Below, one piece after another: positions 3,107 through 29,270 of a DNA stretch of 64,000 nucleotides (position 1 is its first letter; every line of letters starts with the position of its first letter). Where the stretch lies: positions 1 to 64,000 of the forward strand of contig JAENWT010000006.1 of NCBI GenBank assembly GCA_016650125.1, given 5' to 3'. The notes under the pieces were generated by a model. It saw only the letters and a program-made list of their open reading frames with translations. It searched no databases and had not been told where the DNA came from. The DNA comes from Thermoleophilia bacterium (lineage in GTDB: Bacteria; Actinomycetota; Thermoleophilia; Solirubrobacterales; 70-9). Both the position numbers and the translations under genes were made by a program.

Positions 3107-3547
3107 TTACTTGACGGTGAGCGTGCCTTCCATTCCTGCTGCACGGTGTCCAGGCAGGGAGCAGTAGTACGTGTACTCGCCCGGCTTGGCGTCGAAGGAG
3201 ACGTTTTCGCTCGATCCCGTGATCACGTCGCCGCGGGCGACTTCGGCACCGCTTGAGTCTTCGAAGACGACGTCGTGGCCGATTGTGGCGTCATTAGTGA
3301 AGTCGACGTTGACGGTTCCCGACTTCGCTTCGAGGGTGTCGGTGTCGTAAGCCAGGGCGCCACTGGGGTCGGCGGCCAGGGCGACGGCAGCACCACCGCC
3401 ACCAGCGTCGGCGGCCGGCTTTTCGGTCTGGGTGGTGCCGGTGTCAGCCGTGCTGGAATCGGACGAACTGTCGTCGCTTCCGCCGCAGCCGGCAAGGAAG
3501 GCCATTGCCACGAGCGGCAAAGCCAGAAGATAAGCGGAACGTTTCAT
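3107..3547 (-). CDS. Cupredoxin (plastocyanin/azurin-like) lipoprotein
   Basis: The 146-residue protein is an exported blue-copper electron carrier. It begins with a lipoprotein signal ending in the lipobox LAGC (Cys21), followed by a Ser/Asp/Thr-rich linker to about residue 55 and a cupredoxin domain. The type 1 copper ligands are visible as His91 (GHDVVFE), Cys129 (YYCSLPGH), His134 and Met139. It should be anchored to the outer face of the membrane and shuttle electrons, but the partner is not evident nearby. It is transcribed alone, convergent with katA. A low-GC gap upstream (3548-3705) separates it from fbiC copy 1. Confidence 0.9.
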   Translation of the reverse strand: MKRSAYLLALPLVAMAFLAGCGGSDDSSSDSSTADTGTTQTEKPAADAGGGGAAVALAADPSGALAYDTDTLEAKSGTVNVDFTNDATIGHDVVFEDSSGAEVARGDVITGSSENVSFDAKPGEYTYYCSLPGHRAAGMEGTLTVK

Positions 3548-3705: not shown

Positions 3706-6006
3706 ATGCGCAGAGTCACCTTTTCCCGCAATTACACAATCTCGCTTTCCAGGACATGCCAGTGCTATTGCAAGTACTGCGCGTTTGCCACCCACCAGGC
3801 ACACATCCATCCTCCGGAAGAGGTTGAGAAGCGGCTTGACGAAGCGGTCAAGCGCAACGCCAAGGAACTCCTCTTCCTGACCGGAGAGAAGCCCGAGGTG
3901 AATCCGGTGGTTGCCGCCAAGCTGAAGTCGTGGGGCCACGAAGATTTCACCGACTACGTGGTCTGGGCCTGCGAGCGGGCCCTCGAGCGCGGCATCCTGC
4001 CCCACACCAACATCGGAGCGATCGGGGAGACCGGCCTCGCGCGGCTTCGCGAAGTGACCGCCTCACAGGGACTGATGCTCGAGTCGTCCTCGGAGCGGCT
4101 GATGCAGACGGTGCACGCCGGCTCGCCGACCAAGCACCCGACCCACCGCCTGGCCACGATCGAGGCCGCCGGCCGGCTGAAGATCCCGTTCACCACCGGC
4201 ATCCTCGTCGGAATCGGTGAGACACCGGAGGAGCGGATCGAGTCGCTCGAAGCCCTGGCCGGGCTGCAGCGGCGGTACGGGCACATCCAGGAAGTGATCA
4301 TCCAGAACTTCGTGCCGCACCCGCGTTACTACGGCCAGGAGCCGGCAGACATCGCCAACCAGGCTTCGGCTGAACGCTGGACGGGCAAGGGACGGTGGTC
4401 GGCTGACTCCGGGCTTTGGGAAGACACCGAAGGAACCGGGGCCGAGCAGGACCCCTCGGTCGCGATTCCCGACTGGGCCTGCCCGATCACGATCGATGAC
4501 CTCAAGTTCCTGATCACCGAGACCGCACGGCTGATGCCGGACGTCGGAGTCCAGGTGCCGCCCAACCTTTCCGATTGGTGGTCCGGCCTGGTCGAGGCCG
4601 GCGCGACCGACCTCGGCGGCCTCTCGGCCAACGGCGACCACATCTCTCCGGAGCACCCCTTCCCGAGCCCGCACCAGGTTCGGAAAGAGCTGGCGCCCCA
4701 GGGCTTCGCCCTGACCGAACGCCTCTGCGTCTACCCGCAGTACATGAACGCCGACTGGATGGAACAGGGTGTGCTCGACGTGATCAAGCTCAAGTACTGG
4801 AGCTTCATCCCTCGCCTCGGCTCAGGCCGTCGCAGCGACGAGCGGCTCGACCCGGGCCTGGCCCCGGAGGCAATCGCCAAGGGCCGCGAGGGGGTCACCC
4901 TGACCGAGAACGAGTTGACCGCACTGTTCGCCGAGACCAGGCCCGAGGTCATCGAGCAGATGCGTATCGCCGCCGACGAGCTCCGGTTCGAACTCGCGGG
5001 TGACACCGCCACCTTCGTCGTCAACCGCAACATCAACTTCACCAACATCTGCGTGGTCGGCTGCGCCTTCTGCGGCTTCGGTCAGGGCAAGCGTTCGCCT
5101 GACGCGTATGAGTCGACCGAAGAAGAGTTCGTCGGGAGGGTCGAGGAAGCGATCGACTTCGGCGCGACCGAGCTCTGCATGCAGGGCGGCATTCACCCGG
5201 ACCTCGACCTCGAGACCTATGGCCGCTGGCTCCGGCTGGCCAAGGAGGTGGCGCCCGATATCCACCTCCACGCCTACTCACCGATGGAGATCAACCACAT
5301 GTGCGAGAAGTCCGGCTTGCCGGCGGGTGAGGTCTTCGAATACCTGATCGACTGCGGCCTCGGCTCGACCCCGGGCACCGCCGCCGAGGTGCTCGACGAC
5401 GGCGTGCGCCAGCGGATCTCACCAAACAAGCTGCCGGCGGCCCGCTGGGTCGAGATCATCGAGGCCTCGCACAACGCCGGCCTGCGCTCGACGTCGACCG
5501 TGATGTTCGGGCACATCGAGGAGCCACGTGAGCTGGCCCGTCACATGGAAGTGGTCCGGTCGCTCCAGGAGCGCACCGGCGGTATCACCGAGTTCGTACC
5601 ACTCAGCTTCATCCCCTTCAACACGCTGCTCGGGCGGACTCACGGGGTCGAGGAGATATCGATCGAGGAGAACCTCAAGCACACCGCCGCCTTCCGCCTG
5701 GCCCTGGGACGCTCGATCACGAACCTTCAGGCGAGCTGGGTGAAGATGGGCCTTGAGGGTGCTACCGAAGCGCTGCGCTGGGGCGTGAACGACCTCGGCG
5801 GAACCTTGATGGAAGAGAGCATCTCGCGCATGGCCGGTTCCCAGCACGGGGTCAGGCTCGAGGTCGAAGAACTGATCGACTCTGCTCACCGCGCCGGCCG
5901 CAAGGCCGCTCAGCGGGACACGGGTTACGAAATCCTCCAGCGCTACCCGGATCCGATGGCCCCACCAGACCTGCTCGTCAACCTGCCCGGTCCCGCCGCA
6001 GCCTGA
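3706..6006 (+). CDS. fbiC: FO synthase, fused CofG/CofH (copy 1)
   Basis: The 766-residue protein makes the deazaflavin FO, the F420 chromophore precursor, from tyrosine and a riboflavin-pathway pyrimidine. It carries two radical-SAM domains. The N-terminal (CofG-type) cluster is Cys18-x3-Cys22-x2-Cys25 in CQCYCKYC. The C-terminal (CofH-type) cluster is Cys449-x3-Cys453-x2-Cys456 in CVVGCAFCGF. Its length matches actinobacterial FbiC. A second nearly identical gene lies at 24093-26414, and blocks of the two are identical at DNA level (for example 5383-5519 and 25764-25900), suggesting gene conversion. It converges with cofC copy 1. Both active sites appear intact, so this copy could still be functional. 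Confidence 0.95.
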   Translation: MRRVTFSRNYTISLSRTCQCYCKYCAFATHQAHIHPPEEVEKRLDEAVKRNAKELLFLTGEKPEVNPVVAAKLKSWGHEDFTDYVVWACERALERGILPHTNIGAIGETGLARLREVTASQGLMLESSSERLMQTVHAGSPTKHPTHRLATIEAAGRLKIPFTTGILVGIGETPEERIESLEALAGLQRRYGHIQEVIIQNFVPHPRYYGQEPADIANQASAERWTGKGRWSADSGLWEDTEGTGAEQDPSVAIPDWACPITIDDLKFLITETARLMPDVGVQVPPNLSDWWSGLVEAGATDLGGLSANGDHISPEHPFPSPHQVRKELAPQGFALTERLCVYPQYMNADWMEQGVLDVIKLKYWSFIPRLGSGRRSDERLDPGLAPEAIAKGREGVTLTENELTALFAETRPEVIEQMRIAADELRFELAGDTATFVVNRNINFTNICVVGCAFCGFGQGKRSPDAYESTEEEFVGRVEEAIDFGATELCMQGGIHPDLDLETYGRWLRLAKEVAPDIHLHAYSPMEINHMCEKSGLPAGEVFEYLIDCGLGSTPGTAAEVLDDGVRQRISPNKLPAARWVEIIEASHNAGLRSTSTVMFGHIEEPRELARHMEVVRSLQERTGGITEFVPLSFIPFNTLLGRTHGVEEISIEENLKHTAAFRLALGRSITNLQASWVKMGLEGATEALRWGVNDLGGTLMEESISRMAGSQHGVRLEVEELIDSAHRAGRKAAQRDTGYEILQRYPDPMAPPDLLVNLPGPAAA

Positions 6007-6133
6007 CGGGAACGAGGACCGCGCACCTCGAGGCCGGTCACGACGGTGTTCTCGGCCATTCCGTTGCCGAGGTCTAGGCCAGCTCCACTCGGGCACGCTC
6101 CTGGCCGGACCGATCCGCGCTCCGTCCGCTGGG

Positions 6134-6787
6134 CTAGATTCCCAGTATGGCCGCGGTGCGTGGCGCCGGGTTCTCGCCAGCCGCACGGGTCATCTCAAGT
6201 TTCCTGGTTAGAGCATCGATGTCGGCGAGGGTGTCGATGTCGAGCGCTAGCCGGTCTACCTGCTCGGTCGTGTGGGGGATTCCTGCCGTCCCCGCCAGAC
6301 CGAGATGACGCTCGCAGCTGCCCTTGCCGAAGGCGGGTTTGATGGCATCTGGAGGCCGTATAACGAGCGCGTTCGTCCCAGTTCCGTGTCGGTCGGGCAC
6401 CACGGTCACGAGCGGTTCCGGCATACCGGTCAGCAGCCGGTCGAGGTCGCATGGCTCGAGCAGAGGGCAATCGCCTGGCAGCAGGATCACGGAGTCTGCT
6501 CCAAGTTCTCGGGCACGGATGGCCCCGAGCGTCGCGGCGCCGGAATAGCTGGCGTCCTCGGGGTCGTGGATGACTTCGGCCCCGAACTCGGTGGCCAAGC
6601 CAGCCGCAATCGGTTCCCCGGTAACCACGATGGTTGAGGTCACCTGTCGCGCACTGGTCACCGCTTGGAGTACGTCACCGAGCATCGCCTCGACCAAGGC
6701 GAGCCGTTTTGCTTTCGGGATCCCGTCCGACATGCGTTGCTTGGCGGCGGTGAAACGCTTGGCGGTCACTACGGCGATGACGTTCAT
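6134..6787 (-). CDS. cofC: 2-phospho-lactate/PEP guanylyltransferase paralogue (copy 1)
   Basis: The 217-residue protein belongs to the CofC/FbiD family of nucleotidyltransferases. These activate phospholactate or phosphoenolpyruvate with GTP to supply the side chain of F420. Recognisable pieces are the N-terminal VTAKRFTAAKQRM, LLPGDCPLLEP and the PDRHGTGTNAL motif. It is clearly related to the copy at 27706-28347, though more diverged than the two fbiC copies. Its start overlaps by four bases (ATGA) the end of a short relic that finishes in CofD-like sequence, the same junction as in the intact cluster. It lies at the distal end of the minus-strand operon through bioY. The key motifs are intact, so it may still be active. 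Confidence 0.88.
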   Translation of the reverse strand: MNVIAVVTAKRFTAAKQRMSDGIPKAKRLALVEAMLGDVLQAVTSARQVTSTIVVTGEPIAAGLATEFGAEVIHDPEDASYSGAATLGAIRARELGADSVILLPGDCPLLEPCDLDRLLTGMPEPLVTVVPDRHGTGTNALVIRPPDAIKPAFGKGSCERHLGLAGTAGIPHTTEQVDRLALDIDTLADIDALTRKLEMTRAAGENPAPRTAAILGI

Positions 6788-7047
6788 GATTCGATCAGGG
6801 TTTCGCTGACCTTTATCACCGTTCGAGCGAAGGTCGCCCGACTTTTTGGGGCTGTGCCCGAGGGGCGCGGTGGGAAAGTTTCTGATTTCGCTCGACGGCG
6901 GATCAGTACCGAGCAGTCGACCAGAATCTCGCCGGGGGTCAGCAGTTCCTGAGATTGGTCAAATACCCGGACCGGTTGCGAAAAGGGAACAGGAAAGAAT
7001 CCGATTATCCGGCCACCTGCCGCTATCGGCTCTGAAGCGGGGGCCAC
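6784..7047 (-). pseudogene. Fused relic of npdG and cofD ahead of cofC copy 1
   Basis: This 87-codon frame is not a family in its own right. Its first half aligns with NpdG from the intact cluster: EPIAAGGRIIG matches EKIAAESGGDVVG with a small gap, and TPGEILVDCSV matches SAGQILVDCSV. Its last part, RATFARTVIKVSETLIES, aligns with the CofD C-terminus RATVARAVLKVGAQLVGE. Its stop overlaps the cofC start by ATGA, exactly as cofD and cofC overlap at 28344-28347. The simplest reading is an internal deletion that removed most of npdG and cofD from a duplicated npdG-cofD-cofC unit. A GTG start is available, so a short peptide could be translated and keep cofC coupled. Confidence 0.75.
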
Positions 7048-7053
7048 CGGCGG

Positions 7054-7662
7054 TCATCTTGAATCCTTATTGGTGAGCTGGAGGACTTTCCATGCCGAGG
7101 GCATCAAAACCGCACCGACCGCCGCCTTGACGAGGCCTCCGACGATGAAGATGGTGAATCCGTTGTGGATCACCCAGGACAGGGTCTCGCCTGAGTACAG
7201 CTTCAGGCCGACGAGTCCGAATCCGAAGACAATGCATTGCGCGGCTACGAAAGAGAGGAACGCAGTCGCAACCTTGCGATCCGTCCCGTGCTCAGCCAGA
7301 AAACCGACCACCCATGCTGCTGCCATGAACCCGACGATGTACCCGCCAGTCGCACCGAGCAGGTGATGGAAACCCGACGAACCATCTGAGTAGACCGGAA
7401 GGAAGAAGCCCATCACTACGTACAGGGCGATCGCCGACAGTCCGCGGCTGGATCCCAACGAGGCACCGACCAGCACGACCGCAAGAGTCTGTCCTGAAAT
7501 CGGAACCGGAGAGCCCGGTACCGCGAACGATATCTGGGCCGCCAACGCGGTCAGCAGGGCTCCGCCAGCAATCAGAAGGGCCGTGCGAACGTGATTCTTT
7601 GCGATCGAATCCGCCAGGACTGGCACCTGACGAAAGTCTGCGCTCTCAGCGACGTGAGACAT
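7054..7662 (-). CDS. bioY: BioY biotin transporter substrate-binding (S) component
   Basis: The 202-residue integral membrane protein has about six hydrophobic segments and BioY signatures such as VPISGQTLAVVLVGASLG and the LGATGGYIVGF segment. BioY binds biotin and imports it alone or with an energy-coupling (ECF) module; no EcfA/EcfT genes are in the window. A clear ribosome-binding site (AAAGGAACC) precedes the ATG. It sits 80 bp after the aminotransferase gene, in the operon opposite the biotinyl carrier and biotin carboxylase genes, suggesting supply of biotin to that enzyme. Confidence 0.9.
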   Translation of the reverse strand: MSHVAESADFRQVPVLADSIAKNHVRTALLIAGGALLTALAAQISFAVPGSPVPISGQTLAVVLVGASLGSSRGLSAIALYVVMGFFLPVYSDGSSGFHHLLGATGGYIVGFMAAAWVVGFLAEHGTDRKVATAFLSFVAAQCIVFGFGLVGLKLYSGETLSWVIHNGFTIFIVGGLVKAAVGAVLMPSAWKVLQLTNKDSR

Positions 7663-9050: not shown

Positions 9051-10183
9051 CAGTCCACGTCCACGCGATGGCGTCGTATGTAGTCTTCATCGAGTTCCCA
9101 CCCCAGACCCGGGGCGTCGCTCAGTTCGAGTATTCCGTCGCGAAGCTCAGGTCGATTCGCGATCAGGTTCCACCAGATCGGGTCGCGATCGGGATCGAAG
9201 CATTCGGCATAGGTGCCGTGCGGAATCGAACTGAGCAGGTGAGACGACACCTGCGGCTCTTCGTGATGTCCCATCCGAATGTCGTAGCAAGCCGCGGCTG
9301 CCGCTGCGCGACGCCATTCCGTCGGGCCGCCGGACCATGACGCATCGAAGTTGCATACATCGATCGCCCCCGCGATCATTAGGTCGACACAAGCGGTCGC
9401 CGAGTACTCACTCTGCCCTGCGCAGACCGGCAATCCAGCTTGGTAGCGAACGTCACGCATCGCTCTTGCGTCGTTGTGCCAGCGGCAAGGCTCTTCGAAC
9501 CAGGCGATATCGAGGTCGGCCAACAACCTCGCGAATTCCACAGCCTGTGGCGGCGTCCAGGCCTGGTTTGCGTCCACCGCGAGCAGGAAATCCTTTCCTG
9601 CGGCTTCGCGGGCCGTTCTGACACGCTCCGCATCCTCCGCGGGCGAAAGCCCACCGACCTTGAATTTCATCCCGGCCAGACCCTTCTCCTGAAGGCCGGT
9701 GACCTCATCTTCGATCGAGGTGTCGGTGCCGTAGTAGCCGCCGATCGAAATCATTGGCAGCGAGTTGCGGAATCCGCCCCAAAGCAGCCAGAGAGGCACC
9801 TCCAGGGCCTTGCCGACTGCGTCCCAGATCGCCGCGTCCACGCCGGCGCAAGCCACCAGGCCCAGGCGCCGATCCCGAAGGATGTCGAAAGTGGCCGGTC
9901 GGGTGAGCTTCCAGCAGTGCTCGACCCGCATCGCGTCCTCGCCGAGCAGCTGCGGGGCAATCTCGTCACTGACTATCTGGCATATCTCCGATAGGGCACC
10001 GTCCTCGTCGCCCGCGTACGCTTCGCCGATGATCCCCTGGTCGGTGTGGACACGGGTGATCACCGTAGAGCGGTGGGTCATCCGGTACTGGCTTCCATGG
10101 TAGGTTCGGCCCAAAGGTACTCGGATAGGAACCGTTTCGATTGCGGCAATGGTCAACGGGCCTCTGCGCCGTCCGGGGGTCAT
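9050..10183 (-). CDS. Enolase-superfamily enzyme, mandelate racemase-like subgroup
   Basis: The product (about 377 residues) has the capping domain (AIETVPIRVPL) followed by the barrel. The barrel shows the KxK catalytic pair in GMKFKVGG, metal ligands in AVDANQAW and WFEEPC, an acidic residue in AGQSEYS, and an Asp/His pair in NFDASWSGG and GHHEEPQ. This pattern points to proton abstraction next to a carboxylate, giving a dehydratase or epimerase. I chose the ATG at 10183, which overlaps the stop of the upstream luciferase-like gene by four bases (ATGA), over a longer frame that would run into that gene. The exact reaction cannot be read from sequence. Confidence 0.82.
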   Translation of the reverse strand: MTPGRRRGPLTIAAIETVPIRVPLGRTYHGSQYRMTHRSTVITRVHTDQGIIGEAYAGDEDGALSEICQIVSDEIAPQLLGEDAMRVEHCWKLTRPATFDILRDRRLGLVACAGVDAAIWDAVGKALEVPLWLLWGGFRNSLPMISIGGYYGTDTSIEDEVTGLQEKGLAGMKFKVGGLSPAEDAERVRTAREAAGKDFLLAVDANQAWTPPQAVEFARLLADLDIAWFEEPCRWHNDARAMRDVRYQAGLPVCAGQSEYSATACVDLMIAGAIDVCNFDASWSGGPTEWRRAAAAAACYDIRMGHHEEPQVSSHLLSSIPHGTYAECFDPDRDPIWWNLIANRPELRDGILELSDAPGLGWELDEDYIRRHRVDVD

Positions 10184-11220
10184 GCGCCGGCTCCGAACTC
10201 CGGCATGATCTCGCGGGCGAACAGCTCCATTGAGTTGGTCGCGTCGCGCTGTGAGATTCCCGGCAGATGCATCCAGCACGTCAGCTCATCGAGCGCGAGT
10301 TCGTCGTTCATCACGCGCAGCTTCTCCGCAACTGTTTCCGGATCGCCGATCAGATAGCGACTCTTGAACGTTTCGAAGTCAACCTGATCCATGTCGGTGA
10401 TCAGGTCGCCGGCATCATTTCGAAGCTGACGTTCTCCCTGGGCTGATTTCTTGCCGTAGAGGTTCACGAAGAGATGGGTGACCGCGGGTCCGGCGATTTC
10501 CTCCGCCTTCTCCATCGTCTCGGCGACAAACACGCCCTTCATGGCTGGCCGCCAGTCGGGTTTGAATCCGAACTCGGCGCAATGCTCCTCGTATATCCGG
10601 TAATGCTCCTTGAGTTCCGGAACCGTGTGGCGAGGCGATGCAACCAAGATGCAATGGCGCTTGGCGGCGCGTCTAAGCAGTTTCGGGCCCGAGACGCCGT
10701 ACCAGATCGGAGGATGCGGCTTCTGCACCGGTTTCGGAGAAAGCCGGGTCGGCGGCACATCGAAGAACTCGCCCTTGAACTCGAACGTCTCCTGGGTGAA
10801 GGCGAGCTGGAGCAGGTCCATCGTCTCCTCGAACCGACGGAATCGCTCCTCGTAGGGGACCATGTGGCCGGCGAACTCTTCGGAGGCGTAACCGGGGGAG
10901 ACACCGAGCGTCAGGCGGCCGTCGCTCAGGTTGTCGAGGACCGCCACGTCCTCGGCGAGCCGTACCGGCGCGTAGAGCGGTGCGAGCAGAACATTCGTGC
11001 AGACCCGCATCTCTTCGGTGACGGCCGCGGCAGCCATCATGCCTACCAGGGGGCTGGGGCAGTGGCCGTCGAACTGGAAGTGGTGCTCGGTCTGATGGGC
11101 AGATGTGTAACCGAGCTCTTCCGCCCGTGGCAGACAATCCAGCATATCCAGATACGGCTGTTGTTCCGAGATGCCTTTATCGGGTGGGACGATGAAACCG
11201 AACGTGAGTCCAAACTTCAT
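10180..11220 (-). CDS. Luciferase-like (LLM class) flavin/F420-dependent oxidoreductase
   Basis: The 346-residue TIM-barrel protein begins MKFGLTFGFIVPP and carries LLM features such as HQTEHHFQFDG, APLYAPVRLAEDVAVLDNL and SDGRLTLGVSPGY. Members are either FMN monooxygenases (partnered with a flavin reductase) or F420-dependent dehydrogenases. No flavin reductase lies alongside, and F420 biosynthesis genes flank the island on both sides, which makes F420 plausible but unproven. It is translationally coupled to the enolase-superfamily gene. It may oxidise a cyclic amine or amide before ring opening; this is inference from neighbours. Confidence 0.83.
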   Translation of the reverse strand: MKFGLTFGFIVPPDKGISEQQPYLDMLDCLPRAEELGYTSAHQTEHHFQFDGHCPSPLVGMMAAAAVTEEMRVCTNVLLAPLYAPVRLAEDVAVLDNLSDGRLTLGVSPGYASEEFAGHMVPYEERFRRFEETMDLLQLAFTQETFEFKGEFFDVPPTRLSPKPVQKPHPPIWYGVSGPKLLRRAAKRHCILVASPRHTVPELKEHYRIYEEHCAEFGFKPDWRPAMKGVFVAETMEKAEEIAGPAVTHLFVNLYGKKSAQGERQLRNDAGDLITDMDQVDFETFKSRYLIGDPETVAEKLRVMNDELALDELTCWMHLPGISQRDATNSMELFAREIMPEFGAGA

Positions 11221-18796: not shown

Positions 18797-19231
18797 GCTA
18801 AGAGATTCACGCTACCAAAGTCACCGGAGTCATTCAAGGTACGTCTGCCCCGAGATCGTTCGCAGTGATAATCACGACCGGTAGAATGCGAGTTCGCCAA
18901 CTCCTTCGGCAACAGTCGGGCTTGCTGGTCGGCGGAAGGTCTATGGTCTCGGCGAACCTGTCGCGGGCGGCCTGCCGCTGACGGTCCGTTCATGGATGGC
19001 CCGTATGTCGGAGTCGGTGTGCGACGCAGGTCGGCCTCTGGCCGGGCAGAAGGCGGGATGATCCGCAGTGATTTGCTCAGACCGCGGGTGCGGCAGACGC
19101 GGTCTGAAGAGCCACTCACTAACTCACGAAGCTTGGTTGCGGAATTCGGCGCTTCCACTATGGACTCAAGTCGGGACAGGTTGGATACTCGAAACACTCG
19201 GTTGTCTTACCGAACTAGGAGAGAGATAGGA
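18797..19231. promoter_or_regulatory. Divergent promoter region between PucR-type gene and ABC importer
   Basis: There is no convincing gene in this 435-bp gap. A perfect 10-bp inverted repeat, TCAGACCGCG and its complement, lies at 19077-19086/19098-19107 with an 11-base spacer. It is a reasonable operator or attenuator candidate for the importer operon. A strong purine-rich ribosome-binding site (AGGAGAGAGATAGGA) precedes the ATG at 19232. Confidence 0.5.
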
Positions 19232-20494
19232 ATGTCAGGAATATTTGCGCCGAAACGCGTCCTTGTCACAATCGGATTGGCGGTGTCTTTGCTAGCAGCC
19301 GGGTGCGGCTCAAGCAATGACAGCGAGAACGCAAACGACAATGGAAATGAAACCGCTTCCACCCAGGTCGGAAAGGGGCTGCCGGCCAATACCGCCGGCG
19401 CGATCCCTACCCTTCCAAAGGAAATCCAGCCATATTACAAAGGACTGACCAGCAAGCTTGGACCATCGCCACTTGGATCGTTCAAGTCGAAGGCTGAGCC
19501 TCCGTTTACCTTGGGCTACGCCAGCGTATACGCCGGTAACAGTTGGCGCGAGACAATCGTCGACCATTTGAACAATGTGCTCCTTCCGGAGTACAAGAAG
19601 CTTGGGTTGATCGATGAGGTCCTGATTACCGAGTCGGATCTTGATATCCCGACTCAGATTCAGAATCAGAAGCAGTTGATGGATCGGGGTGCCGATGGTT
19701 TGATCACGATCGCGCCGCCCCCGGGGCTCGAGCAATCTGTCAAGTATGCCTCCGACAGGGGAGTTCCATTCCTTTCCTTCGATGGAGGAGTCGCCGCTCC
19801 GGAAGCGTTGCTCACGGGCGTAAACTACTTCCTCGCCGGATACCAGGAGGCTCAGGGACTAGCCACCCAGATTGGCGGAGAGGGCGATGTGGTGCTCGTA
19901 AACGGGATCGAGGGTACCGAGGGGTCCGATGACTTCGAGAAGGGTGCCGAACGGGCACTTGAGGAGTTTCCGGGGATCAACGTCGTCGGCACTATCAACG
20001 GCCAGTGGACTTTGGCTGTGGCCAAGGCTGAGATGCTGAAGTTCCTCGGGACTCATCCGGAGCCGCTCGACGGCGTGATCGCTCAGGCCGGGACCGAAAC
20101 CGGAGTGCTTCAGGCATTGAAGCAGACTGGCCGCGACATCCCTCCGATCACGATCGGGGGCGAGATCGGTCCCATGTGTTATTGGAAGAACAACCCCGAC
20201 TGGTTGAAACAGGGGTACCAGATGTGGCCGCCCAAGGCAGAAGTTGACCTCGCAGTCCGCGTCATGCTCAGGACTCTGCTTGGCCAGGGTCCCAAGATCG
20301 AGACGATACCGCGGCCCCAGTCGACTCTGACATATGACGAGATGGTCAAGCTCCTACCCTCGGAAGATTGCTCGGAGGATGACATCAACTGGCTACCGCT
20401 CGACGGCCAGGACTGGATGCCAGATGAAACGCTCGACGGATTCTTCAAGAACCCGTTTCCGCTGGAGGACTGGGAATCTCGCATCGGTGGCTGA
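19232..20494 (+). CDS. ABC importer substrate-binding lipoprotein (type 1 periplasmic-binding fold)
   Basis: I start this 420-residue protein at the ATG with the strong ribosome-binding site. A signal peptide then ends in the lipobox LLAAGC and is followed by a linker of Asn/Asp/Ser. The mature part resembles CUT2 sugar-binding proteins (LacI-like fold): QKQLMDRGADGLITI, GVPFLSFDGG and DGVIAQAGTETGVLQAL. Despite the family name, members also carry non-sugar ligands, and the surrounding genes suggest a nitrogen-containing compound. It is the first gene of an operon with ATPase and two permeases. Confidence 0.88.
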   Translation: MSGIFAPKRVLVTIGLAVSLLAAGCGSSNDSENANDNGNETASTQVGKGLPANTAGAIPTLPKEIQPYYKGLTSKLGPSPLGSFKSKAEPPFTLGYASVYAGNSWRETIVDHLNNVLLPEYKKLGLIDEVLITESDLDIPTQIQNQKQLMDRGADGLITIAPPPGLEQSVKYASDRGVPFLSFDGGVAAPEALLTGVNYFLAGYQEAQGLATQIGGEGDVVLVNGIEGTEGSDDFEKGAERALEEFPGINVVGTINGQWTLAVAKAEMLKFLGTHPEPLDGVIAQAGTETGVLQALKQTGRDIPPITIGGEIGPMCYWKNNPDWLKQGYQMWPPKAEVDLAVRVMLRTLLGQGPKIETIPRPQSTLTYDEMVKLLPSEDCSEDDINWLPLDGQDWMPDETLDGFFKNPFPLEDWESRIGG

Positions 20495-22109
20495 CCCGCT
20501 GACGAAAAGCATGGGGGACAGCAGCGTCGAGGACGCTGCTGTCCCCTTTCCGGTCGAGCTGCGGGACGTCGGAAAGCGATTCGGGGAGACCATCGCGCTC
20601 GACGACGTCTCTCTCGAGGGCAAGGCTGGCGAGATCCACGCGATCGTCGGAGAGAACGGCAGCGGCAAGAGCACCTTAGTCAAGTTGATGGCTGGGGTGC
20701 ACCGGCCGAACCGGGGGGAAGTACTGGTGTTCGGTGGCTCGGTCGGTTCGTTCGGTCCGGCTCAGATGCAGGAGCTTGGCCTTGTGGCAGTCTTCCAAGA
20801 GGTGCTCGTGGCGGAAGGAGCGTCGGTTCTGGACAACATCTTCGTCGGGTACGACGGCCTCTTCCGGGCGCGGCTCTCTCGCGCCGAGAAAGCGGCGCGT
20901 GCCACGGAGATTCTTGGCCGACTCATGCCCGACGAGATCGATCTGGAAATGCCTTGTACGCAGTTGAGCCTCAGTGAGCGTCAGCTCGTGACCGTGGCGC
21001 GTGCATTGGTTCGTGATCCGAAGGTCTTGATCCTCGACGAATCCACCTCGGCATTGGATCTGAACGCTACGAAGGCCGTGGTCCGAGAACTGAAACGAAT
21101 CAGAGACGCCGGAGTCTGCGTGTTTCTGGTGACCCACCGGATCGCCGAACTCAGCGTTCTGGCAGATCGCGCCACCGTCTTGCGGGACGGTAGGACAGTC
21201 GGCATGCTCACCCGTGAAGAATTCTCGGAGCAACGCGTGTTGGAGTTGATGACTGGGCAACCGGACGGCGTCATCTCTGGCGACTATACGCGAGTGATCG
21301 ACGAAGCACGCGTGGGACCCGTGGTGCTGAATGTCGAGGATGCCCGACTCGAGGAGGACTCAGATCCATTCTCCTTGCAGCTTCACGAAGGTGAGATTGT
21401 GGGATTGACTGGACTCGAGGGTCACGGTCAGGTCGAACTGATTCGGGCTCTCGCTCAGATCAAACCATTGCACGGTGGGGCAGTCCATCTCGTATCTGGT
21501 CAAGACCAGGCCAGTGTCGCTGAACCGGGAAGCGAGATTGCCTATGTTTCGGGAGACCGTAAGGCTGAGGGAATCTTTCCTGACCTGTCGATCCTCGAGA
21601 ACTTCGCGTTACCGGCCTACAGGCGGTTCAGTCGCGCGGGCCTGATTGACCGCAAGCGCGTAAATCGCACTTTCGCCGCCTACCGGGAGAAGCTGAAGAT
21701 CAGGCTGGGACGGTCCAGCCAACCCATCACGGCGTTGAGCGGTGGCAATCAGCAGAAAGTCCTGCTGGCACGCTGGCTGGCGATGGAGCCGCGAGTCCTG
21801 CTTCTCAACGACCCGACCTTGGGTGTCGACATCGGGACCAAGCGCGACGTCTACCAGGTGCTGCGTGAACTCGCCTACGAGAGGGGTACCGGAGTCGTCT
21901 TCGTTTCAACCGAGATCGAGAGCCTGATCGGGCTCTGCGACAGAATCGTCGTCTTTCGGGAGGGTACGATCTTCGCCGAACTCGACGGCTCGAGCACAGT
22001 CGACGAAGTGCTGGCCAAGATGTTCGGGTTGGAGGGGGTAGAGACCGGGCTCGACGTGGCCGCGAGCTTGCGAAGTTCAATGGACGATGAGATCGAGGCG
22101 GAAACGTGA
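20487..22109 (+). CDS. CUT2-type ABC transporter ATPase with two nucleotide-binding domains
   Basis: This protein of about 540 residues carries two ABC domains. The first is complete: Walker A GENGSGKST, a signature-like LSLSERQ, and Walker B LILDESTSALD. The second has a degenerate P-loop, as in this family, a good signature (LSGGNQQKVLLARW) and an altered Walker B (LLLNDPTLGVD), with Asn and Asp where Asp and Glu are expected. The GTG at 20487 overlaps the binding-protein stop; an ATG at 20511 is an alternative start. It would power import by the two permeases that follow. Confidence 0.85.
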   Translation: MADPLTKSMGDSSVEDAAVPFPVELRDVGKRFGETIALDDVSLEGKAGEIHAIVGENGSGKSTLVKLMAGVHRPNRGEVLVFGGSVGSFGPAQMQELGLVAVFQEVLVAEGASVLDNIFVGYDGLFRARLSRAEKAARATEILGRLMPDEIDLEMPCTQLSLSERQLVTVARALVRDPKVLILDESTSALDLNATKAVVRELKRIRDAGVCVFLVTHRIAELSVLADRATVLRDGRTVGMLTREEFSEQRVLELMTGQPDGVISGDYTRVIDEARVGPVVLNVEDARLEEDSDPFSLQLHEGEIVGLTGLEGHGQVELIRALAQIKPLHGGAVHLVSGQDQASVAEPGSEIAYVSGDRKAEGIFPDLSILENFALPAYRRFSRAGLIDRKRVNRTFAAYREKLKIRLGRSSQPITALSGGNQQKVLLARWLAMEPRVLLLNDPTLGVDIGTKRDVYQVLRELAYERGTGVVFVSTEIESLIGLCDRIVVFREGTIFAELDGSSTVDEVLAKMFGLEGVETGLDVAASLRSSMDDEIEAET

Positions 22110-23089
22110 AAGCCGTTCTTCAAGACTTCGGGAGAAAGAACAACTACGCGCTGACCGCAACAGGACTCCTGTTCGCATTGCTGATCGTCGCCGCGATTCG
22201 CGGGCCCGAACTGTTTAACACGGAAGGACTGACGATTGCGTTCGCGGTGGCCGCTCCGCTGGTCTTGGCTTCGATGGCCGTGACCCCACCAGCGATTTCG
22301 GGGCGCGCCGGAGTCGACCTTTCCATCGGTCCGCTGCTGGCTTTCACCAATGTCACCGTCTTTGTATGGCTGATAGCCAACGGCGTCACCAGTCCATTCT
22401 TGGTCGTCCCGTTCGCGGTCGGGGTGGGCGCCCTGGTTGGGTTGATCAACGGGTTGGTGATCGCCACGGTTCGCCTCCAGCCGGTTGTAGTGACGCTTGG
22501 GAGCTTCCTGGTCCTTTCCGGACTGGCTGCGCTGATCCAGCCACGCCCTCGCCAGGCTGAATTGCCTTCCTGGCTCCTGAGCTTGACCGGAACCTGGGGA
22601 GGAATCCCATCTGCGGCAGTGGTGCTCGTCCTGGTGTGTGTGGCTTGGTTGCTGGTCAGCCGCTCCACCTACTTTCGAAACGTTCGATTGCTCGGTTACT
22701 GTGAGCGAACTGCCTATTCGAGTGGGGTGCCGGTCATCCGCGTCCGGGTCGGGGCATACGTCCTGGGTGGCATGCTGGCCGGCGTCGGAGGTCTGATGCT
22801 GACATCGCTTCTGGCTTCGGCGGACCCGAACACCGGGTCGGCCTACACGCTGACTGCGCTCACTGCGCTTGTTCTCGGTGGTACGAGCATTCTCGGCGGA
22901 AAGGGCGGTATGACGGGCTCAGTGATTGCCGCCTTCGATGTCTACCTGATCCAGTATGTGCTTTCGACATTCGAGTTCGGCAAGTCCGCCGCCTTCGTCA
23001 ATCAGTTCTCAAATGGCATGGTGCTCTTGATCGCGCTAGCGATCGGCACTCTGGCTGCGTGGTACATGAGGAGAAAGAGCTTGCTATGA
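22106..23089 (+). CDS. ABC transporter permease (CUT2/RbsC-like), first
   Basis: The 327-residue polytopic membrane protein has about eight to ten hydrophobic segments and the family segments GRAGVDLSIGP, GLINGLVIA and the C-terminal GTSILGGKGGM. It overlaps the ATPase stop (GTGA) and is itself overlapped by the second permease (ATGA). Having two different permease genes is consistent with a heterodimeric channel. Confidence 0.9.
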   Translation: MKAVLQDFGRKNNYALTATGLLFALLIVAAIRGPELFNTEGLTIAFAVAAPLVLASMAVTPPAISGRAGVDLSIGPLLAFTNVTVFVWLIANGVTSPFLVVPFAVGVGALVGLINGLVIATVRLQPVVVTLGSFLVLSGLAALIQPRPRQAELPSWLLSLTGTWGGIPSAAVVLVLVCVAWLLVSRSTYFRNVRLLGYCERTAYSSGVPVIRVRVGAYVLGGMLAGVGGLMLTSLLASADPNTGSAYTLTALTALVLGGTSILGGKGGMTGSVIAAFDVYLIQYVLSTFEFGKSAAFVNQFSNGMVLLIALAIGTLAAWYMRRKSLL

Positions 23090-24060
23090 GCGCGTTTGTC
23101 CGTCGCTTCCAGAATCAACTGCTTGGCTTTGGTGTGCTCGTCTTGCTGCTCATTGCCGGCAGCGTTCAGATTGACGGTTTCACTTCGAGCTTCAACCTCA
23201 AGTCGATGCTCGTGCTCGGTTCCTTCCTCGGAATCGCGGCTGCGGGACAGACTCTCTGCGCTCTGATCGGCGGACTCGATATTTCGATTCCTTTCGTGAT
23301 CGGCGCAGCCAACGTCTTGCTCGTCTGGCTAATCGGGAAAGGAGCCTCGGCGGCGGTCGCCATCCTCGTGGTTCTTGCGCTCGCGACTCTGGTTGGTGTC
23401 GCCAATGGGCTCATCAGCTACAAGGTCGATGCTCCTCCACTGATTGTGACTCTTGGTATGGGTTTCGCGGTCATCGGCGCCACTCAGATCGTCGCCGCAT
23501 CCGGACCGAGCACGTTCGCCTCTTATTCGCCGCCGCCCGCCTGGCTAATCGACATGACCTCGCTCAACAGCTCCTTCCTCGGAACCGGGATCCCCACGGT
23601 GACGATTGTCTGGCTGGCGATCAGCGTCGGGATACTGGGGTTCCTGCGATTCACTCGGTTCGGCCGCGGCATCTACGCGCTTGGCAGCAACTCCCTTGCC
23701 GCCCGGCTCGCATTGGTAAAGGAAGCCGGAATCTGGATCGCGGTTTTCACACTAAGCGGGTTCCTGGCAGGTGCCGCCGGGATTCTACTGGTCGGTTTCA
23801 GCGGTGGCGGGGCAGTTTCGATCGGTGATCCGTACATGTTCACGACGATCGCGGCGGTCGTCATAGGCGGTACCTCCCTGTTAGGTGGGAAAGGCGGCTA
23901 CGGACTGACCATGCTTGGCGTGGCGATCCTGACCGTTCTTCAGAGCTTCTTGGTGGGCATCGGGTTCAGCCCGCCCGCGCAGCAGGCGATGCTCGGAGCG
24001 TTGATCGTGGTTGCGCTCGCCTTTTACGGTCGTGAGGCCCACCCCCGGATGCGGATCTGA
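23086..24060 (+). CDS. ABC transporter permease (CUT2/RbsC-like), second
   Basis: The 324-residue membrane protein begins at the ATG overlapping the previous stop; a longer frame from 23059 runs into the first permease and is less likely. It shares the family features LIGGLDISIPF, VGVANGLISYK and GGTSLLGGKGGYG. It pairs with the previous permease. It is the last gene of the importer operon, and fbiC copy 2 follows after 32 bp, possibly co-transcribed. Confidence 0.9.
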   Translation: MSAFVRRFQNQLLGFGVLVLLLIAGSVQIDGFTSSFNLKSMLVLGSFLGIAAAGQTLCALIGGLDISIPFVIGAANVLLVWLIGKGASAAVAILVVLALATLVGVANGLISYKVDAPPLIVTLGMGFAVIGATQIVAASGPSTFASYSPPPAWLIDMTSLNSSFLGTGIPTVTIVWLAISVGILGFLRFTRFGRGIYALGSNSLAARLALVKEAGIWIAVFTLSGFLAGAAGILLVGFSGGGAVSIGDPYMFTTIAAVVIGGTSLLGGKGGYGLTMLGVAILTVLQSFLVGIGFSPPAQQAMLGALIVVALAFYGREAHPRMRI

Positions 24061-24092: not shown

Positions 24093-26414
24093 ATGCGCAG
24101 AGTCACCTTTTCCCGGAATTACACGATCTCTCTGTCACGGACATGCCAGTGCTATTGCAAGTACTGCGCGTTTGCCACCCACCAGGCGCACATCCATCCG
24201 CCGGACGAGGTCGAGAAGCGCCTCGACGAGGCGGTCCGGCGGAATGCCAAGGAACTACTGTTCCTGACCGGGGAGAAGCCCGAAGTCAACCCGATCGTTG
24301 CGGCGAAGCTCGAGTCCTGGGGGCACACTGATTTCACCGGGTATGTGGTCTGGGCCTGTGAGCGAGCGCTCGAGCGCGGCATCCTTCCCCACACCAACAT
24401 CGGCGCGATCAACGAGTCCGACCTCGCCCGCCTGCGCGAGGTGACCGCCTCGCAGGGCTTGATGCTCGAATCGTCTTCCGAGCGGCTGATGGGGACTGTC
24501 CACGCCGGCTCGCCGACCAAGCACCCGGCTCACCGTCTCGCCACGATCGAGGCTGCGGGCAAGCTGAAGATTCCGTTCACGACCGGCATCCTCGTCGGAA
24601 TCGGTGAGACGCCGGAGGAGCGGATCGAGTCGCTCGAAGCCCTGGCCGGGCTGCAGCGGCGGTACGGGCACATCCAGGAAGTGATCATCCAGAACTTCGT
24701 GCCGCATCCGCGTTACTACGGCCAGGAGCCGGCAGACATCGCCAACCAGGCTTCGGCCGAGCGCTGGTCAGGCAAGGGCCGCTGGTCGGCAGATTCCGGC
24801 CTCTGGGATGAGACGGAAGATGCGCCGCAGGACGATTCCGTGGTCATCCCGGACTGGGCCTGTCCGATCACGATCGATGACCTCAAGTTCCTGATCACCG
24901 AGACCGCCCGGCTGATGCCCGGCGTCGGAGTCCAGGTCCCGCCGAACCTCTCCGCCTGGTGGTCGGAACTCATCGAGGCCGGCGCAACCGACCTCGGCGG
25001 ACTCTCAGCCAACGGCGACCACATCTCTCCGGAGCACCCCTTCCCGAGTCCGCATCAGGTCAGGAAGGAGCTCGCTCCCCAGGGATTCGCGCTCACCGAG
25101 CGGCTTTGCGTCTACCCGCAGTACATGAACGCGGAGTGGATGGAACAGGGTGTGCTCGACGTGATCAAGCTCAAGTACTGGAGCTTCATCCCTCGCCTCG
25201 GCTCCGGCCGCCGCAGCGACGAGCAGCTCGACCCGGGCCTGTCTCCGGAGGCGATCGCCAAGGGCCGCGAGGGGGTCACCCTGACCGAGGACGAGCTGAC
25301 CGCGCTTTTCGCCGAGACCAGGCCCGAAGTCATCGAGCAGATGCGTGTGGCCGCCGATGAGCTGCGTTTCGAGCTCGCGGGTGACACCGCCACCTTCGTC
25401 GTCAACCGCAACATCAACTTCACCAACATCTGCGTGGTCGGCTGCGCCTTCTGTGGCTTCGGTCAGGGCAAGCGCTCGCCGGACGCTTACGAGTCGACCG
25501 AAGAAGAGTTCGTCGGCCGGGTCCAGGAGGCGATCGAATTCGGCGCGACCGAACTCTGCATGCAGGGCGGGATCCACCCGGACCTTACCCTCGAGACCTA
25601 TGGGCGCTGGCTCCGGCTGGCCAAGGAGGTGGCGCCGGACATCCACCTCCACGCGTATTCGCCGATGGAGATCAACCACATGTGCGAGCGGTCCGGCCTG
25701 CCTCCCCGTGAGGTCTTCGAGTACCTGATCGAATGCGGACTGAACTCGACCCCGGGAACCGCGGCCGAGGTGCTCGACGACGGCGTGCGCCAGCGGATCT
25801 CACCAAACAAGCTGCCGGCGGCCCGCTGGGTCGAGATCATCGAGGCCTCGCACAACGCCGGCCTGCGCTCGACGTCGACCGTGATGTTCGGGCACATCGA
25901 AGAGCCGCGCGAGCTGGCCCGTCACATGGAAGTGGTCCGGTCGCTCCAGGAGCGCACCGGCGGAATCACCGAGTTCGTGCCGCTCAGCTTCATCTCCTTC
26001 AATACCCTGCTCGGACGCACCCACGGCGTTGAGGAGATTTCTATCGAGGAGAACCTCAAGCACACCGCCGCCTTCCGCCTGGCCCTGGGACGCTCGATCA
26101 CGAACCTTCAGGCGAGCTGGGTGAAGATGGGCCTCGAGGGAGCCACGGAGGCCCTGCGCTGGGGCGTCAACGACCTTGGCGGAACACTGATGGAGGAGAG
26201 CATCTCCCGCATGGCCGGCTCCCAGCACGGGGTCAGGCTCGAGGTCGAAGAGCTGATCGACTCTGCTCACCGCGCTGGCCGCAAGGCCGCTCAGCGGGAC
26301 ACGTCATACGAAATCCTCCAGCGCTACCCGGACCGGATGGCCCCCGAGGTAAACCTGGTCGAAAGTCTTACTGCCGAACGCGCTCGTATCGCATCAGCGG
26401 TACCCCCGAGCTGA
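24093..26414 (+). CDS. fbiC: FO synthase, fused CofG/CofH (copy 2)
   Basis: The 773-residue paralogue of the gene at 3706 has both radical-SAM cysteine clusters (CQCYCKYC near residue 18 and CVVGCAFCGF in the second half). The two proteins differ mainly at scattered positions, in a short stretch near residue 240 and at the C-terminus. The stretch before the ATG contains GGAAAG as ribosome-binding site. It is convergent with the reductase-like gene at 26368-26934, overlapping its end by 47 bases, and belongs to the complete F420 locus that extends to 29965. This is the more likely housekeeping copy. Confidence 0.95.
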   Translation: MRRVTFSRNYTISLSRTCQCYCKYCAFATHQAHIHPPDEVEKRLDEAVRRNAKELLFLTGEKPEVNPIVAAKLESWGHTDFTGYVVWACERALERGILPHTNIGAINESDLARLREVTASQGLMLESSSERLMGTVHAGSPTKHPAHRLATIEAAGKLKIPFTTGILVGIGETPEERIESLEALAGLQRRYGHIQEVIIQNFVPHPRYYGQEPADIANQASAERWSGKGRWSADSGLWDETEDAPQDDSVVIPDWACPITIDDLKFLITETARLMPGVGVQVPPNLSAWWSELIEAGATDLGGLSANGDHISPEHPFPSPHQVRKELAPQGFALTERLCVYPQYMNAEWMEQGVLDVIKLKYWSFIPRLGSGRRSDEQLDPGLSPEAIAKGREGVTLTEDELTALFAETRPEVIEQMRVAADELRFELAGDTATFVVNRNINFTNICVVGCAFCGFGQGKRSPDAYESTEEEFVGRVQEAIEFGATELCMQGGIHPDLTLETYGRWLRLAKEVAPDIHLHAYSPMEINHMCERSGLPPREVFEYLIECGLNSTPGTAAEVLDDGVRQRISPNKLPAARWVEIIEASHNAGLRSTSTVMFGHIEEPRELARHMEVVRSLQERTGGITEFVPLSFISFNTLLGRTHGVEEISIEENLKHTAAFRLALGRSITNLQASWVKMGLEGATEALRWGVNDLGGTLMEESISRMAGSQHGVRLEVEELIDSAHRAGRKAAQRDTSYEILQRYPDRMAPEVNLVESLTAERARIASAVPPS

Positions 26415-26934
26415 ACTTCGACTGCTCGACGAGCGCCCACTTCTTGCCGGCGAAGTTGGGCCCGAGGTAAGGCTTGCCGCCACCGATGACCACCGGAAAG
26501 ACCACCATCAGCAATTCGTCGATCAGGTCGAACTCGGCGAGGCTGTTGGCCAGACCGGGTCCACCTACGTCGATCGGACCGCCCGGCATTTCCTTCAGGC
26601 GCCTGACTTCAGCCTCGATATCCCCGGAGACCAGAGTCAGGCCGTCAGGGACCGAATCGAGGGTCCGGGAGAAGACGTAACGCGGAGTCTCCACCCAGGC
26701 CTGGGCAAACTCGTCGGCGTAGTCCGGCCCCGGCCGGTTCGCGGCCACTTCGGTCCAATGGGGCTCCATGGTTTCGTACATGCGCCGGCCCATGAGGGAG
26801 GCTCCGGCCTGTCGAATGACGTCGTTCGTGAATCGGTGAATCTCCTCGTCGGGTTCGGCCCAGCTGAAGTCACCAGTGCTGTCCTCGTAGTAGCCGTCGA
26901 TCGAGACTTGCCCCATGTAGACGATCTTGCGCAT
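26368..26934 (-). CDS. RibD C-terminal/dihydrofolate reductase-like protein
   Basis: The 188-residue protein belongs to the bacterial DHFR/RibD C-terminal superfamily, as seen in the start RKIVYMGQVSIDGY, LMGRRMYETM and GGPGLANSLAEFDLIDE followed by PVVIGGGKPYL. Members reduce pteridine- or flavin-pathway compounds with NADPH, but most such stand-alone proteins have no assigned substrate. It begins 11 bases... downstream of no other gene's coding end on the same strand except cofE, whose stop lies just upstream, so it is probably the last gene of the npdG-cofD-cofC-cofE operon. Its 3' end overlaps fbiC copy 2. Confidence 0.8.
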   Translation of the reverse strand: MRKIVYMGQVSIDGYYEDSTGDFSWAEPDEEIHRFTNDVIRQAGASLMGRRMYETMEPHWTEVAANRPGPDYADEFAQAWVETPRYVFSRTLDSVPDGLTLVSGDIEAEVRRLKEMPGGPIDVGGPGLANSLAEFDLIDELLMVVFPVVIGGGKPYLGPNFAGKKWALVEQSKFSSGVPLMRYERVRQ

Positions 26935-27706: not shown

Positions 27707-28347
27707 CAGATGCCAAGAACCTTAGCGGTGCGCGGCGCCTCGCCCTGATTCAGATCAAGCCTGGTGGTCAGGGCCACGAAGTCGGCCGGCGTATCGAGGT
27801 CAAGGGCCAGAGTTGGCAATTCTTCAGTTGTGTGGGGGATCCCTGCCGCCCGAGCCAGGTCCAGATGGCGCTGGCAGCTGCCCTCTCCGAAGGCCGGGAC
27901 GATCGCATCAGGCGGCGAGAGCGCCAGGGCGTTGGTCCCGGTTCCGTGGCGGTCCGGGACGACGCTCACGAATGGAGTCGGAAGTCCGGTCAGCAGGCGG
28001 TCCAGCTCGCGGGGGTCGAGCAGCGGACAGTCTCCCGGCAGCAGGGCCACGCTCGGCGCGCCGAGCTCAAGGGCCCGGCTGATGCCCATCGACGCGGCCT
28101 GGGAATGGCTGGCGTCGTCGGGGTCGTGGATCACCTCGGCGCCGGAATCCCGGGCGAGCTCCTCGGCACGGCCCTCTCCGGTGACCACGAGCACCTGCCC
28201 CACGGTCTTCGCGCGGCCGACCGATTCGAGCACGTCGCCCAGCATCGCTTCAACCAGTGCCAGCCGCAGTGTTTCGTCGATCGAACCGGCCAGCCGCTGC
28301 TTGGCGGCGGTGAAGCGCTTGGCCGTGACGATCGCGACCGATTTCAT
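27706..28347 (-). CDS. cofC: 2-phospho-lactate/PEP guanylyltransferase (copy 2)
   Basis: The 213-residue CofC/FbiD protein begins MKSVAIVTAKRFTAAKQRL and contains LLPGDCPLLDP and PDRHGTGTNAL. I place the start at 28347, where ATGA overlaps the cofD stop; a much longer open frame continues upstream but only as a shadow of cofD. It makes the GTP-activated side-chain donor used by CofD. It is the counterpart of the gene at 6134-6787. Confidence 0.93.
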   Translation of the reverse strand: MKSVAIVTAKRFTAAKQRLAGSIDETLRLALVEAMLGDVLESVGRAKTVGQVLVVTGEGRAEELARDSGAEVIHDPDDASHSQAASMGISRALELGAPSVALLPGDCPLLDPRELDRLLTGLPTPFVSVVPDRHGTGTNALALSPPDAIVPAFGEGSCQRHLDLARAAGIPHTTEELPTLALDLDTPADFVALTTRLDLNQGEAPRTAKVLGI

Positions 28348-29270
28348 TCTCCGACCAGCTGTGCGCCCACCTTGAGCACTGCGCGGGCCACGGTCGCGCG
28401 GCTTTCGGTGCTGTGCATGAGGGTGTCGGTCGAGAACGAGCGCACGGAGTCTGGTGCGGGATCGGGATCGGCCGCGTCGCAGATCATCGCGTCGATCAGT
28501 CCTTCGTACAGAGAGGCCACGCCGGCTGCGGTGGTCGGCCGCGAGATGGCCCGCATGAAGTGGTCGGTCGGCCCCTTGACGACCTTGCCGGCGACGTAAG
28601 GACTGACCGCGATCACCGGGGCGTCCGCACCAGTGATCAGGTCTTTCATTCCGGGGACGGCGAGGATCGGCCCGATGCTGATCACCGGGTTCGACGGTCC
28701 GAGGACGATCAGTTCGGCGTCGGCGATGGCGGAGGCCACCTCGGGGGTCGGGGCGGCTTCGGCGATGCCCGTCAGCTCGACACCCTCGACTTCGGTCTGG
28801 CCGCCTTCGAGGATCAGGTACTCCTGGAGGCCGCGCCACTCGCCGCTGCTGAGGATTCGGGTCCGCACCGGATCGTCGGACATCGGCAGCACGTTGGCGG
28901 CGACGCCCATGCCCCGCCCGATTTGGAGCTGGGCATCGGTCTGGCGCCCGCCTTCGTCGATGAAGTTGCGCCGGTACAGGCACGCGGCGAGGTCGAGGTC
29001 GGAGAGCGAGAACCAGTTGGGGGCGCCCAGCCGGGACATGCGCTCGAACACGCGGAAGGAGTCGTCCTTGATGCCCCAGCCCCGGACCTGGTCGACCTGG
29101 TCCGCGAGCCAGTAGGTGACGAGATCGGGGTCGGGCGAAACGTGTGCCCCGAGGATCTCGATGTCGTCGCCGGTGTTGGCGATCACGGTGAGGTCAGAGC
29201 CGATGACCGCCTGCATGCCGGCCGCGAGCTTGGCACCGCCGGTGCCTCCGGCGAGCAGGATCGTCTTCAC
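28344..29270 (-). CDS. cofD: 2-phospho-L-lactate (or enolpyruvyl) transferase
   Basis: The 308-residue CofD/FbiA enzyme joins the activated phospholactate-type donor to FO. The N-terminal LLAGGTGGAKLAAGM loop, VIANTGDDIEILGAHVSPD and the segment LGPSNPVISIGPIL are diagnostic. It is coupled at both ends: its start overlaps the npdG stop by four bases and its stop overlaps the cofC start by four. The C-terminal RATVARAVLKVGAQLVGE is the sequence preserved in the relic at 6784-7047. Confidence 0.95.
   Translation of the reverse strand: MKTILLAGGTGGAKLAAGMQAVIGSDLTVIANTGDDIEILGAHVSPDPDLVTYWLADQVDQVRGWGIKDDSFRVFERMSRLGAPNWFSLSDLDLAACLYRRNFIDEGGRQTDAQLQIGRGMGVAANVLPMSDDPVRTRILSSGEWRGLQEYLILEGGQTEVEGVELTGIAEAAPTPEVASAIADAELIVLGPSNPVISIGPILAVPGMKDLITGADAPVIAVSPYVAGKVVKGPTDHFMRAISRPTTAAGVASLYEGLIDAMICDAADPDPAPDSVRSFSTDTLMHSTESRATVARAVLKVGAQLVGE

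What the first reader, a model, noticed from the sequence alone, without database searches (positions are those of the whole stretch)
6784..7047. A fused npdG-cofD relic reveals a decayed second F420 locus
The short frame joins NpdG-like sequence (GEILVDCSV) to the CofD C-terminus (RATFARTVIKV) and then overlaps a cofC paralogue by ATGA, just as intact cofD does at 28344-28347. With fbiC copy 1 next door, this is the skeleton of a duplicated fbiC/npdG-cofD-cofC locus from which most of cofD and npdG, plus cofE and the reductase, were lost. The surviving cofC and fbiC remain open and could be under selection.
Basis: seen in the sequence. Interest (0 to 1): 0.7.

Follow-up and report, generated by a model that had tools for sequence, protein, structure and literature searches.

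The report
Remnant of a second F420 operon
An actinobacterium of the order Solirubrobacterales carries the wreckage of a second set of genes for making the cofactor F420; this set seems to have come from a related lineage rather than from copying its own genes, and most of it has decayed because the original set is still intact.

Summary
Window 7005-6784 (minus strand) is a real npdG-cofD remnant. An npdG piece (about 7005-6906) joins the cofD 3' end (about 6904-6784) across a deletion of about 1.19 kb. It keeps the ATGA overlap with cofC1. DNA scores are far above shuffles (88 vs max 35; 65 vs max 37).

The open 87-aa frame is not a fused protein. It hides three indels, and the missing matches read in the other two frames (PFRNRSGYLTNL; DPPSSEIRNFPTAPLGHS). 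About 11% of shuffles stay open too.

The interpretation needs correcting. Relatives have one locus: cup-fbiC…cofE-cofC-cofD-npdG-acyl-CoA genes. Here the left flank (cup) stays with fbiC1 and the right flank with locus 2; a 17-kb block lies between. The two cofC genes are not sisters (AU p=0.002). CofC1, the cofD remnant and bioY fall with a neighbouring clade ("clade A"); cofD, cofE, cup, fbiC and cofC2 follow the host lineage. So this looks like a horizontally acquired cofC-cofD-npdG segment in the resident F420 locus, decayed by redundancy, with fbiC separately duplicated or homogenised. FbiC copies look constrained (dN/dS about 0.1). CofC1 keeps its catalytic residues but lost 5 of 60 otherwise invariant ones. 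Ordinary in kind; modest interest.

The parts
6906..7005 (-). npdG remnant (about codons 73-105 of npdG), with one +1 and one -1 indel
   Evidence: DNA 74-82% identical to genus npdG genes; frame 1 reads PFRNRSGYLTNL vs NpdG PFRNQSEYLTNL, then frame 0 LTPGEILVDCSV
6784..6904 (-). cofD 3' remnant (about codons 268-end), one indel near 6850; stop codon kept, ATGA overlap with cofC1
   Evidence: DNA 71% to G015 cofD over 121 nt; frame 2 DPPSSEIRNFPTAPLGHS then frame 0 SRATFARTVIKVSETLIES*; closest to clade A CofD
6904..6907 (-). deletion junction: about 1.19 kb (rest of npdG and 5' most of cofD) missing
   Evidence: maps to L064 3415 and 4602 in the intact G015 operon
6134..6787 (-). cofC1 (217 aa), open, CofC family, clade A type
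   Evidence: TIGR03552 133 bits above cutoff 105; tree and AU test
3706..6006 (+). fbiC1 (766 aa), intact; keeps the ancestral left neighbour cup
   Evidence: 94% aa to fbiC2, dN/dS about 0.1; cup-fbiC adjacency in relatives
3107..3547 (-). cup: plastocyanin/azurin-like protein, ancestral left flank of the F420 locus
   Evidence: PF00127; 75% to G017, same place in relatives
7054..7662 (-). bioY, directly upstream of the relic, same strand; elsewhere in the genomes of relatives; tree puts it at the base of clade A (84/94)
   Evidence: PF02632
7743..24060 (.). genes without close orthologs in the genus where tested (aminotransferase, MR/MLE enolase, LLM oxidoreductase, ALDH, PxpABC-like, biotin carboxylase, PucR, sugar ABC transporter), separating the two F420 loci
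   Evidence: GC3 0.67-0.76 vs 0.81-0.88 for the resident F420 genes cofC2, cofD, npdG and fbiC
24093..26414 (+). fbiC2 (773 aa), 32 bp after the ABC permease; homology to fbiC1 starts 2 nt before the ATG
26368..26934 (-). RibD_C-domain reductase, resident locus
   Evidence: PF01872
26945..27706 (-). cofE, resident
   Evidence: TIGR01916
27706..28347 (-). cofC2, resident, sister to G017 cofC
   Evidence: TIGR03552, tree
28344..29270 (-). cofD, resident, intact
   Evidence: TIGR01819
29267..29965 (-). npdG, resident, intact
   Evidence: TIGR01915
30034..34249 (+). ancestral right flank (thioesterase-like, HMG-CoA-lyase-like, hydroxyacyl-CoA dehydrogenase-like, acyl-CoA carboxylase-like)
   Evidence: same order in nearly all genus relatives; names by inspection, not family-searched

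Best explanation
The left locus is the decayed remnant of a second F420 biosynthesis segment (cofC-cofD-npdG) that entered the resident F420 locus from a lineage near clade A of the same genus. The likely route is recombination at or beside fbiC, since the two fbiC copies bracket the inserted DNA. Because the resident cofD, npdG and cofE were intact, the incoming ones were redundant. A deletion of about 1.19 kb fused npdG to the cofD tail, small indels followed, and cofE and the reductase went completely (or never came). fbiC1 most likely still makes FO synthase. cofC1 still encodes a plausible CofC guanylyltransferase that could only act with the resident CofD; it is mildly relaxed and probably on its way out or a dosage backup. 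Shown: relic identity, indels, synteny, incongruent trees. Inferred: the transfer, its route, the order of events and present function.
For: DNA and three-frame protein homology. Single canonical locus in the genus relatives examined, with cup on the left and acyl-CoA genes on the right; here those flanks are split between the two loci. Among 50 family genomes only this one has two full cofC genes. CofC1 in clade A 99/95, while cofD, cofE, acc, cup and cofC2 pair with G017. AU rejects cofC1+cofC2 (p=0.002) and cofC1+cofC2+G017 (p=0.026). The CofD tail of the relic matches clade A best. BioY, directly beside it, also attaches to clade A. The fbiC1 tail APPDLLVNLPGPAAA resembles clade A G006 APPDLLADLAGPAAA. 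Catalytic residues K10, D106, T138, G154, S157, D183, D185 are kept in CofC1 (PMC6450877). CofC is inactive without CofD (PMC8498797).
Against: The fbiC body shows no mosaic and both copies are host-type, so a whole-operon transfer needs gene conversion, or the fbiC copy arose separately. The npdG piece is not specifically clade A (best G003/G008, then clade A). CofC1 sits outside the clade A crown on a long branch (0.3), so the donor is unsampled. An ancient duplication with several losses gives a similar tree. GC3 of cofC1 (0.74) is within the range of cofC genes in the genus.
Confidence: 0.72

Rival explanations
1. Block duplication inside this lineage: fbiC-cofE-cofC-cofD-npdG was copied once, and the left copy decayed.
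For: fbiC1 and fbiC2 are 94% identical and group together with G017 at 97/98 support; the two loci bracket the insertion.
Against: cofC1+cofC2 as sisters rejected, p-AU 0.002; with G017 added, p 0.026. cofC dS about 1.1 against fbiC dS 0.41. The CofD tail and BioY are clade A-like.
Confidence: 0.08
2. Ancient duplication of the cluster before the genus diversified, with differential loss: type 1 kept in clade A, type 2 kept in the other lineages, both kept here.
For: Would give the observed cofC tree; the split between G017, G002/G004 and clade A is not resolved.
Against: Needs at least three independent losses. cofD and acc trees follow one species-like history. No other family genome has two full cofC genes.
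Confidence: 0.12
3. The 87-aa frame is a retained small gene or translational-coupling leader between bioY and cofC1 rather than a dead relic.
For: Open in frame with the end of bioY and ends in ATGA on cofC1; cofC1 has no evident Shine-Dalgarno of its own.
Against: Three indels within it; 214 of 2000 shuffles keep the frame open; no second sequence to test constraint.
Confidence: 0.05
4. Assembly artefact: a metagenome contig joining two organisms.
For: Genome is in 41 contigs, and related species co-occur in such samples (inference).
Against: Contamination 0.17%. fbiC copies differ by 10%, too much for a short-read mis-join (inference). The cup-fbiC1 side and locus 2 both match the host lineage.
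Confidence: 0.03

Closest known systems
Actinobacterial F420 biosynthesis locus (fbiC, cofE/fbiB-like, cofC/fbiD, cofD/fbiA) with npdG
   Same: Gene content and order, ATGA overlap cofD/cofC, intact family matches for fbiC, cofC and the resident genes
   Different: Left locus lacks cofE; cofD and npdG are fragments; bioY lies in front of the relic
Horizontal transfer of F420 biosynthesis genes (review PMC8498797)
   Same: Gene tree of cofC1 conflicts with the host's other genes
   Different: Here transfer is within a genus, leaves a partial second copy, and lands inside the resident locus
Pseudogene decay after redundancy (ordinary loss of extra gene copies in bacteria)
   Same: Large internal deletion, several indels, loss of redundant genes
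   Different: Nothing in principle

Membership tests
CofD (2-phospho-L-lactate transferase) relic | sequence homology to the CofD C-terminus at the cofD position upstream of cofC | tested here: met
CofD (functional) | full-length CofD domain (PF01933/TIGR01819) | tested here: not met
   no Pfam or NCBIfam hit for the relic; about 267 codons deleted
NpdG (F420:NADPH reductase) relic | homology to npdG codons 73-105 | tested here: met
NpdG (functional) | N-terminal NADPH-binding Rossmann motif and full domain (PF03807/TIGR01915) | tested here: not met
   N-terminal part absent; no family hit
CofC/FbiD (cofC1) | TIGR03552 above cutoff | tested here: met
   133 bits vs 105
CofC/FbiD (cofC1) | Mg and PEP contact residues of Mtb FbiD (K17, D116, T148, G163, S166, D188, D190) | tested here: met
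   K10, D106, T138, G154, S157, D183, D185 (PMC6450877, PMC8764529); the eighth, L92, aligns to S82 in a loop
CofC/FbiD (cofC1) | guanylyltransferase activity with CofD | not testable with these tools
   needs enzyme assay
Within-lineage duplicate of cofC2 | cofC1 and cofC2 are sister genes | tested here: not met
   p-AU 0.002
Xenolog from near clade A | cofC1 groups with clade A against the host's other genes | tested here: met
   99/95 support; donor not sampled
FbiC (fbiC1) | CofG and CofH domains intact | tested here: met
   TIGR03550 and TIGR03551 above cutoffs

The most novel reading that the evidence does not exclude
cofC1 and the extra fbiC are kept by selection as a hybrid supply: a foreign CofC working with the resident CofD, raising F420 output for an F420-dependent LLM oxidoreductase encoded in the 17-kb island, with the dead npdG-cofD frame serving only to couple translation from bioY to cofC1.
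Probability: 0.08. Interest if true: 0.45.

Novelty: new member of a known kind. Interest (0 to 1): 0.28.

Why it matters
It is a clear case of a cofactor operon segment acquired on top of a working one and then eroded, with the interacting pair CofC-CofD broken up so that a foreign CofC would have to work with the resident CofD. It also shows that an apparently neat open frame can hide three indels, and that two paralogous gene pairs side by side (fbiC, cofC) can have different histories, so counting genes alone would mislead annotation of F420 capacity.

Tried and rejected
A remnant of cofE or the reductase in 6007-6133: scores equal shuffles. A mosaic in the fbiC body that would date the crossover: none, both copies share the same pattern. 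GC3 as proof of foreign origin: cofC1 is low (0.74) but within the range of cofC genes. A named closest relative carrying the same island: the genome-contig scan gave only three clade A MAGs with a single cofC match each. Papers on duplicated F420 loci or on Solirubrobacter F420 clusters: nothing relevant found.

Full report
What is there. The reported frame 6784-7047(-) lies between bioY (7054-7662 -) and a second cofC (cofC1, 6134-6787 -), with fbiC1 (3706-6006 +) beyond it. It overlaps cofC1 by ATGA, as intact cofD overlaps cofC2 at 28344-28347. Pfam and NCBIfam do not recognise the frame.

Is the homology real? Yes. The protein match to NpdG scores 73, while 2000 shuffles reach at most 50; the CofD match scores 47 with 13 of 2000 shuffles as high. 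Searching 61 genomes with the relic gave npdG, in the same operon as cofC, as the best or near-best hit in most genus members. DNA alignment to intact operons shows two pieces that meet at about 6907-6904: npdG (about 7005-6906; 80% over 85 nt to G015) and the 3' end of cofD (71% over 121 nt to G015). In G015 these pieces are 1186 nt apart (L064 3415 to 4602), so about 1.19 kb is missing. Against dinucleotide shuffles the pieces score 88 (max 35) and 65 (max 37).

The frame is not a fusion protein. Part of the homology is in the other frames. Frame 1 reads PFRNRSGYLTNL (NpdG PFRNQSEYLTNL) at 6986-6951; frame 0 then reads LTPGEILVDCSV; frame 2 reads DPPSSEIRNFPTAPLGHS (clade A CofD DPPPTEVRSFSTATLMHS) at 6904-6851; frame 0 again reads SRATFARTVIKVSETLIES and stop. 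So there are one large deletion and at least three indels. That one frame stays open is unremarkable: 214 of 2000 shuffles do so.

The normal arrangement. In the genus the locus is single: cup(-), fbiC(+), then [reductase] cofE, cofC, cofD, npdG (-), then a block of acyl-CoA genes (+). Cup stands beside fbiC in most relatives whose contig extends that far, including the sister genome G017. In this genome cup stays with fbiC1 and the acyl-CoA block stays with locus 2. Between them lie cofC1, the relic, bioY and about 16 kb of catabolic and transport genes. The ABC permease has no ortholog in other genus members (best hits 25-36%), and the aminotransferase only distant ones (58% or less). So the extra material sits inside the resident F420 locus, bracketed by two fbiC genes.

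History of the genes. Trees of cofD, cofE, the acyl-CoA carboxylase gene, cup and cofC2 pair this genome with G017; both fbiC copies also group with G017. CofC1 instead groups with six other genomes, 'clade A' (G010, G015, G012, G006, G001, G009; three of these correspond to named Solirubrobacterales MAGs), with support 99/95. Holding cofC1 and cofC2 together is rejected (p-AU 0.002), and holding them together with G017 gives p 0.026. The CofD tail of the relic is also most like clade A, and BioY beside it attaches to the base of clade A (84/94, long branch). The last residues of fbiC1 resemble clade A too, though the body of both copies is host-type without mosaic. The fbiC pair is much closer (dS 0.41, dN 0.04) than the cofC pair (dS about 1.1, near saturation). 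One block duplication does not explain this. A transfer from near clade A of a cofC-cofD-npdG(-bioY) segment, with fbiC duplicated by the recombination or homogenised later, does. An old duplication with several losses remains possible.

State of the survivors. fbiC1 and fbiC2 have dN/dS about 0.1 and complete domains. CofC1 is open, scores above the family cutoff, and keeps the residues that bind Mg and substrate in FbiD (K10, D106, T138, G154, S157, D183, D185; PMC6450877, PMC8764529). Yet it has lost 5 of 60 residues that are invariant in the other 19 CofC sequences compared (H81Y, R113C, E114D, E155K, P187L), more than any other gene in the set (0 to 3). This fits mild relaxation. CofC enzymes are inactive without CofD (PMC8498797), so CofC1 could act only with the resident CofD. 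cofE and the reductase leave no trace in the roughly 128-bp gap behind fbiC1.

Verdict. Steps shown: identity of the relic, deletion and indels, split synteny, conflicting gene trees. Steps inferred: horizontal transfer, recombination at fbiC, order of losses, and any present activity of cofC1.

Noticed in passing
L099 (G014:C15:1-1200) and L089 (G014:C22): Another genus member, G014, also has two fbiC genes (75% identical over 412 aa); both have a cup gene beside them. The second is cut by the contig end. Its cofD/npdG trees lean to clade A and its cofE to the host lineage of this window, so it may be another hybrid locus or contamination (5%).
   Followed up: partly
window 18992-26414: fbiC2 starts 32 bp after a sugar ABC transporter operon and has lost the ancestral upstream region; it may be expressed with the transporter.
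   Followed up: no
window 10180-11220: The island encodes an LLM-class oxidoreductase whose best NCBIfam match is an F420-dependent subfamily (TIGR03619, 145 bits, below the 167 cutoff), a possible user of F420 beside the extra F420 genes.
   Followed up: no
window 7054-7662: bioY here is the only bioY match found in the genome and sits directly before the relic in the same frame; relatives have bioY elsewhere.
   Followed up: partly
genus relatives, cofE (L062-L067): CofE of clade A sits on a long stem branch (0.52, support 100/100), longer than for neighbouring genes, suggesting rapid change or replacement of cofE in that clade.
   Followed up: no
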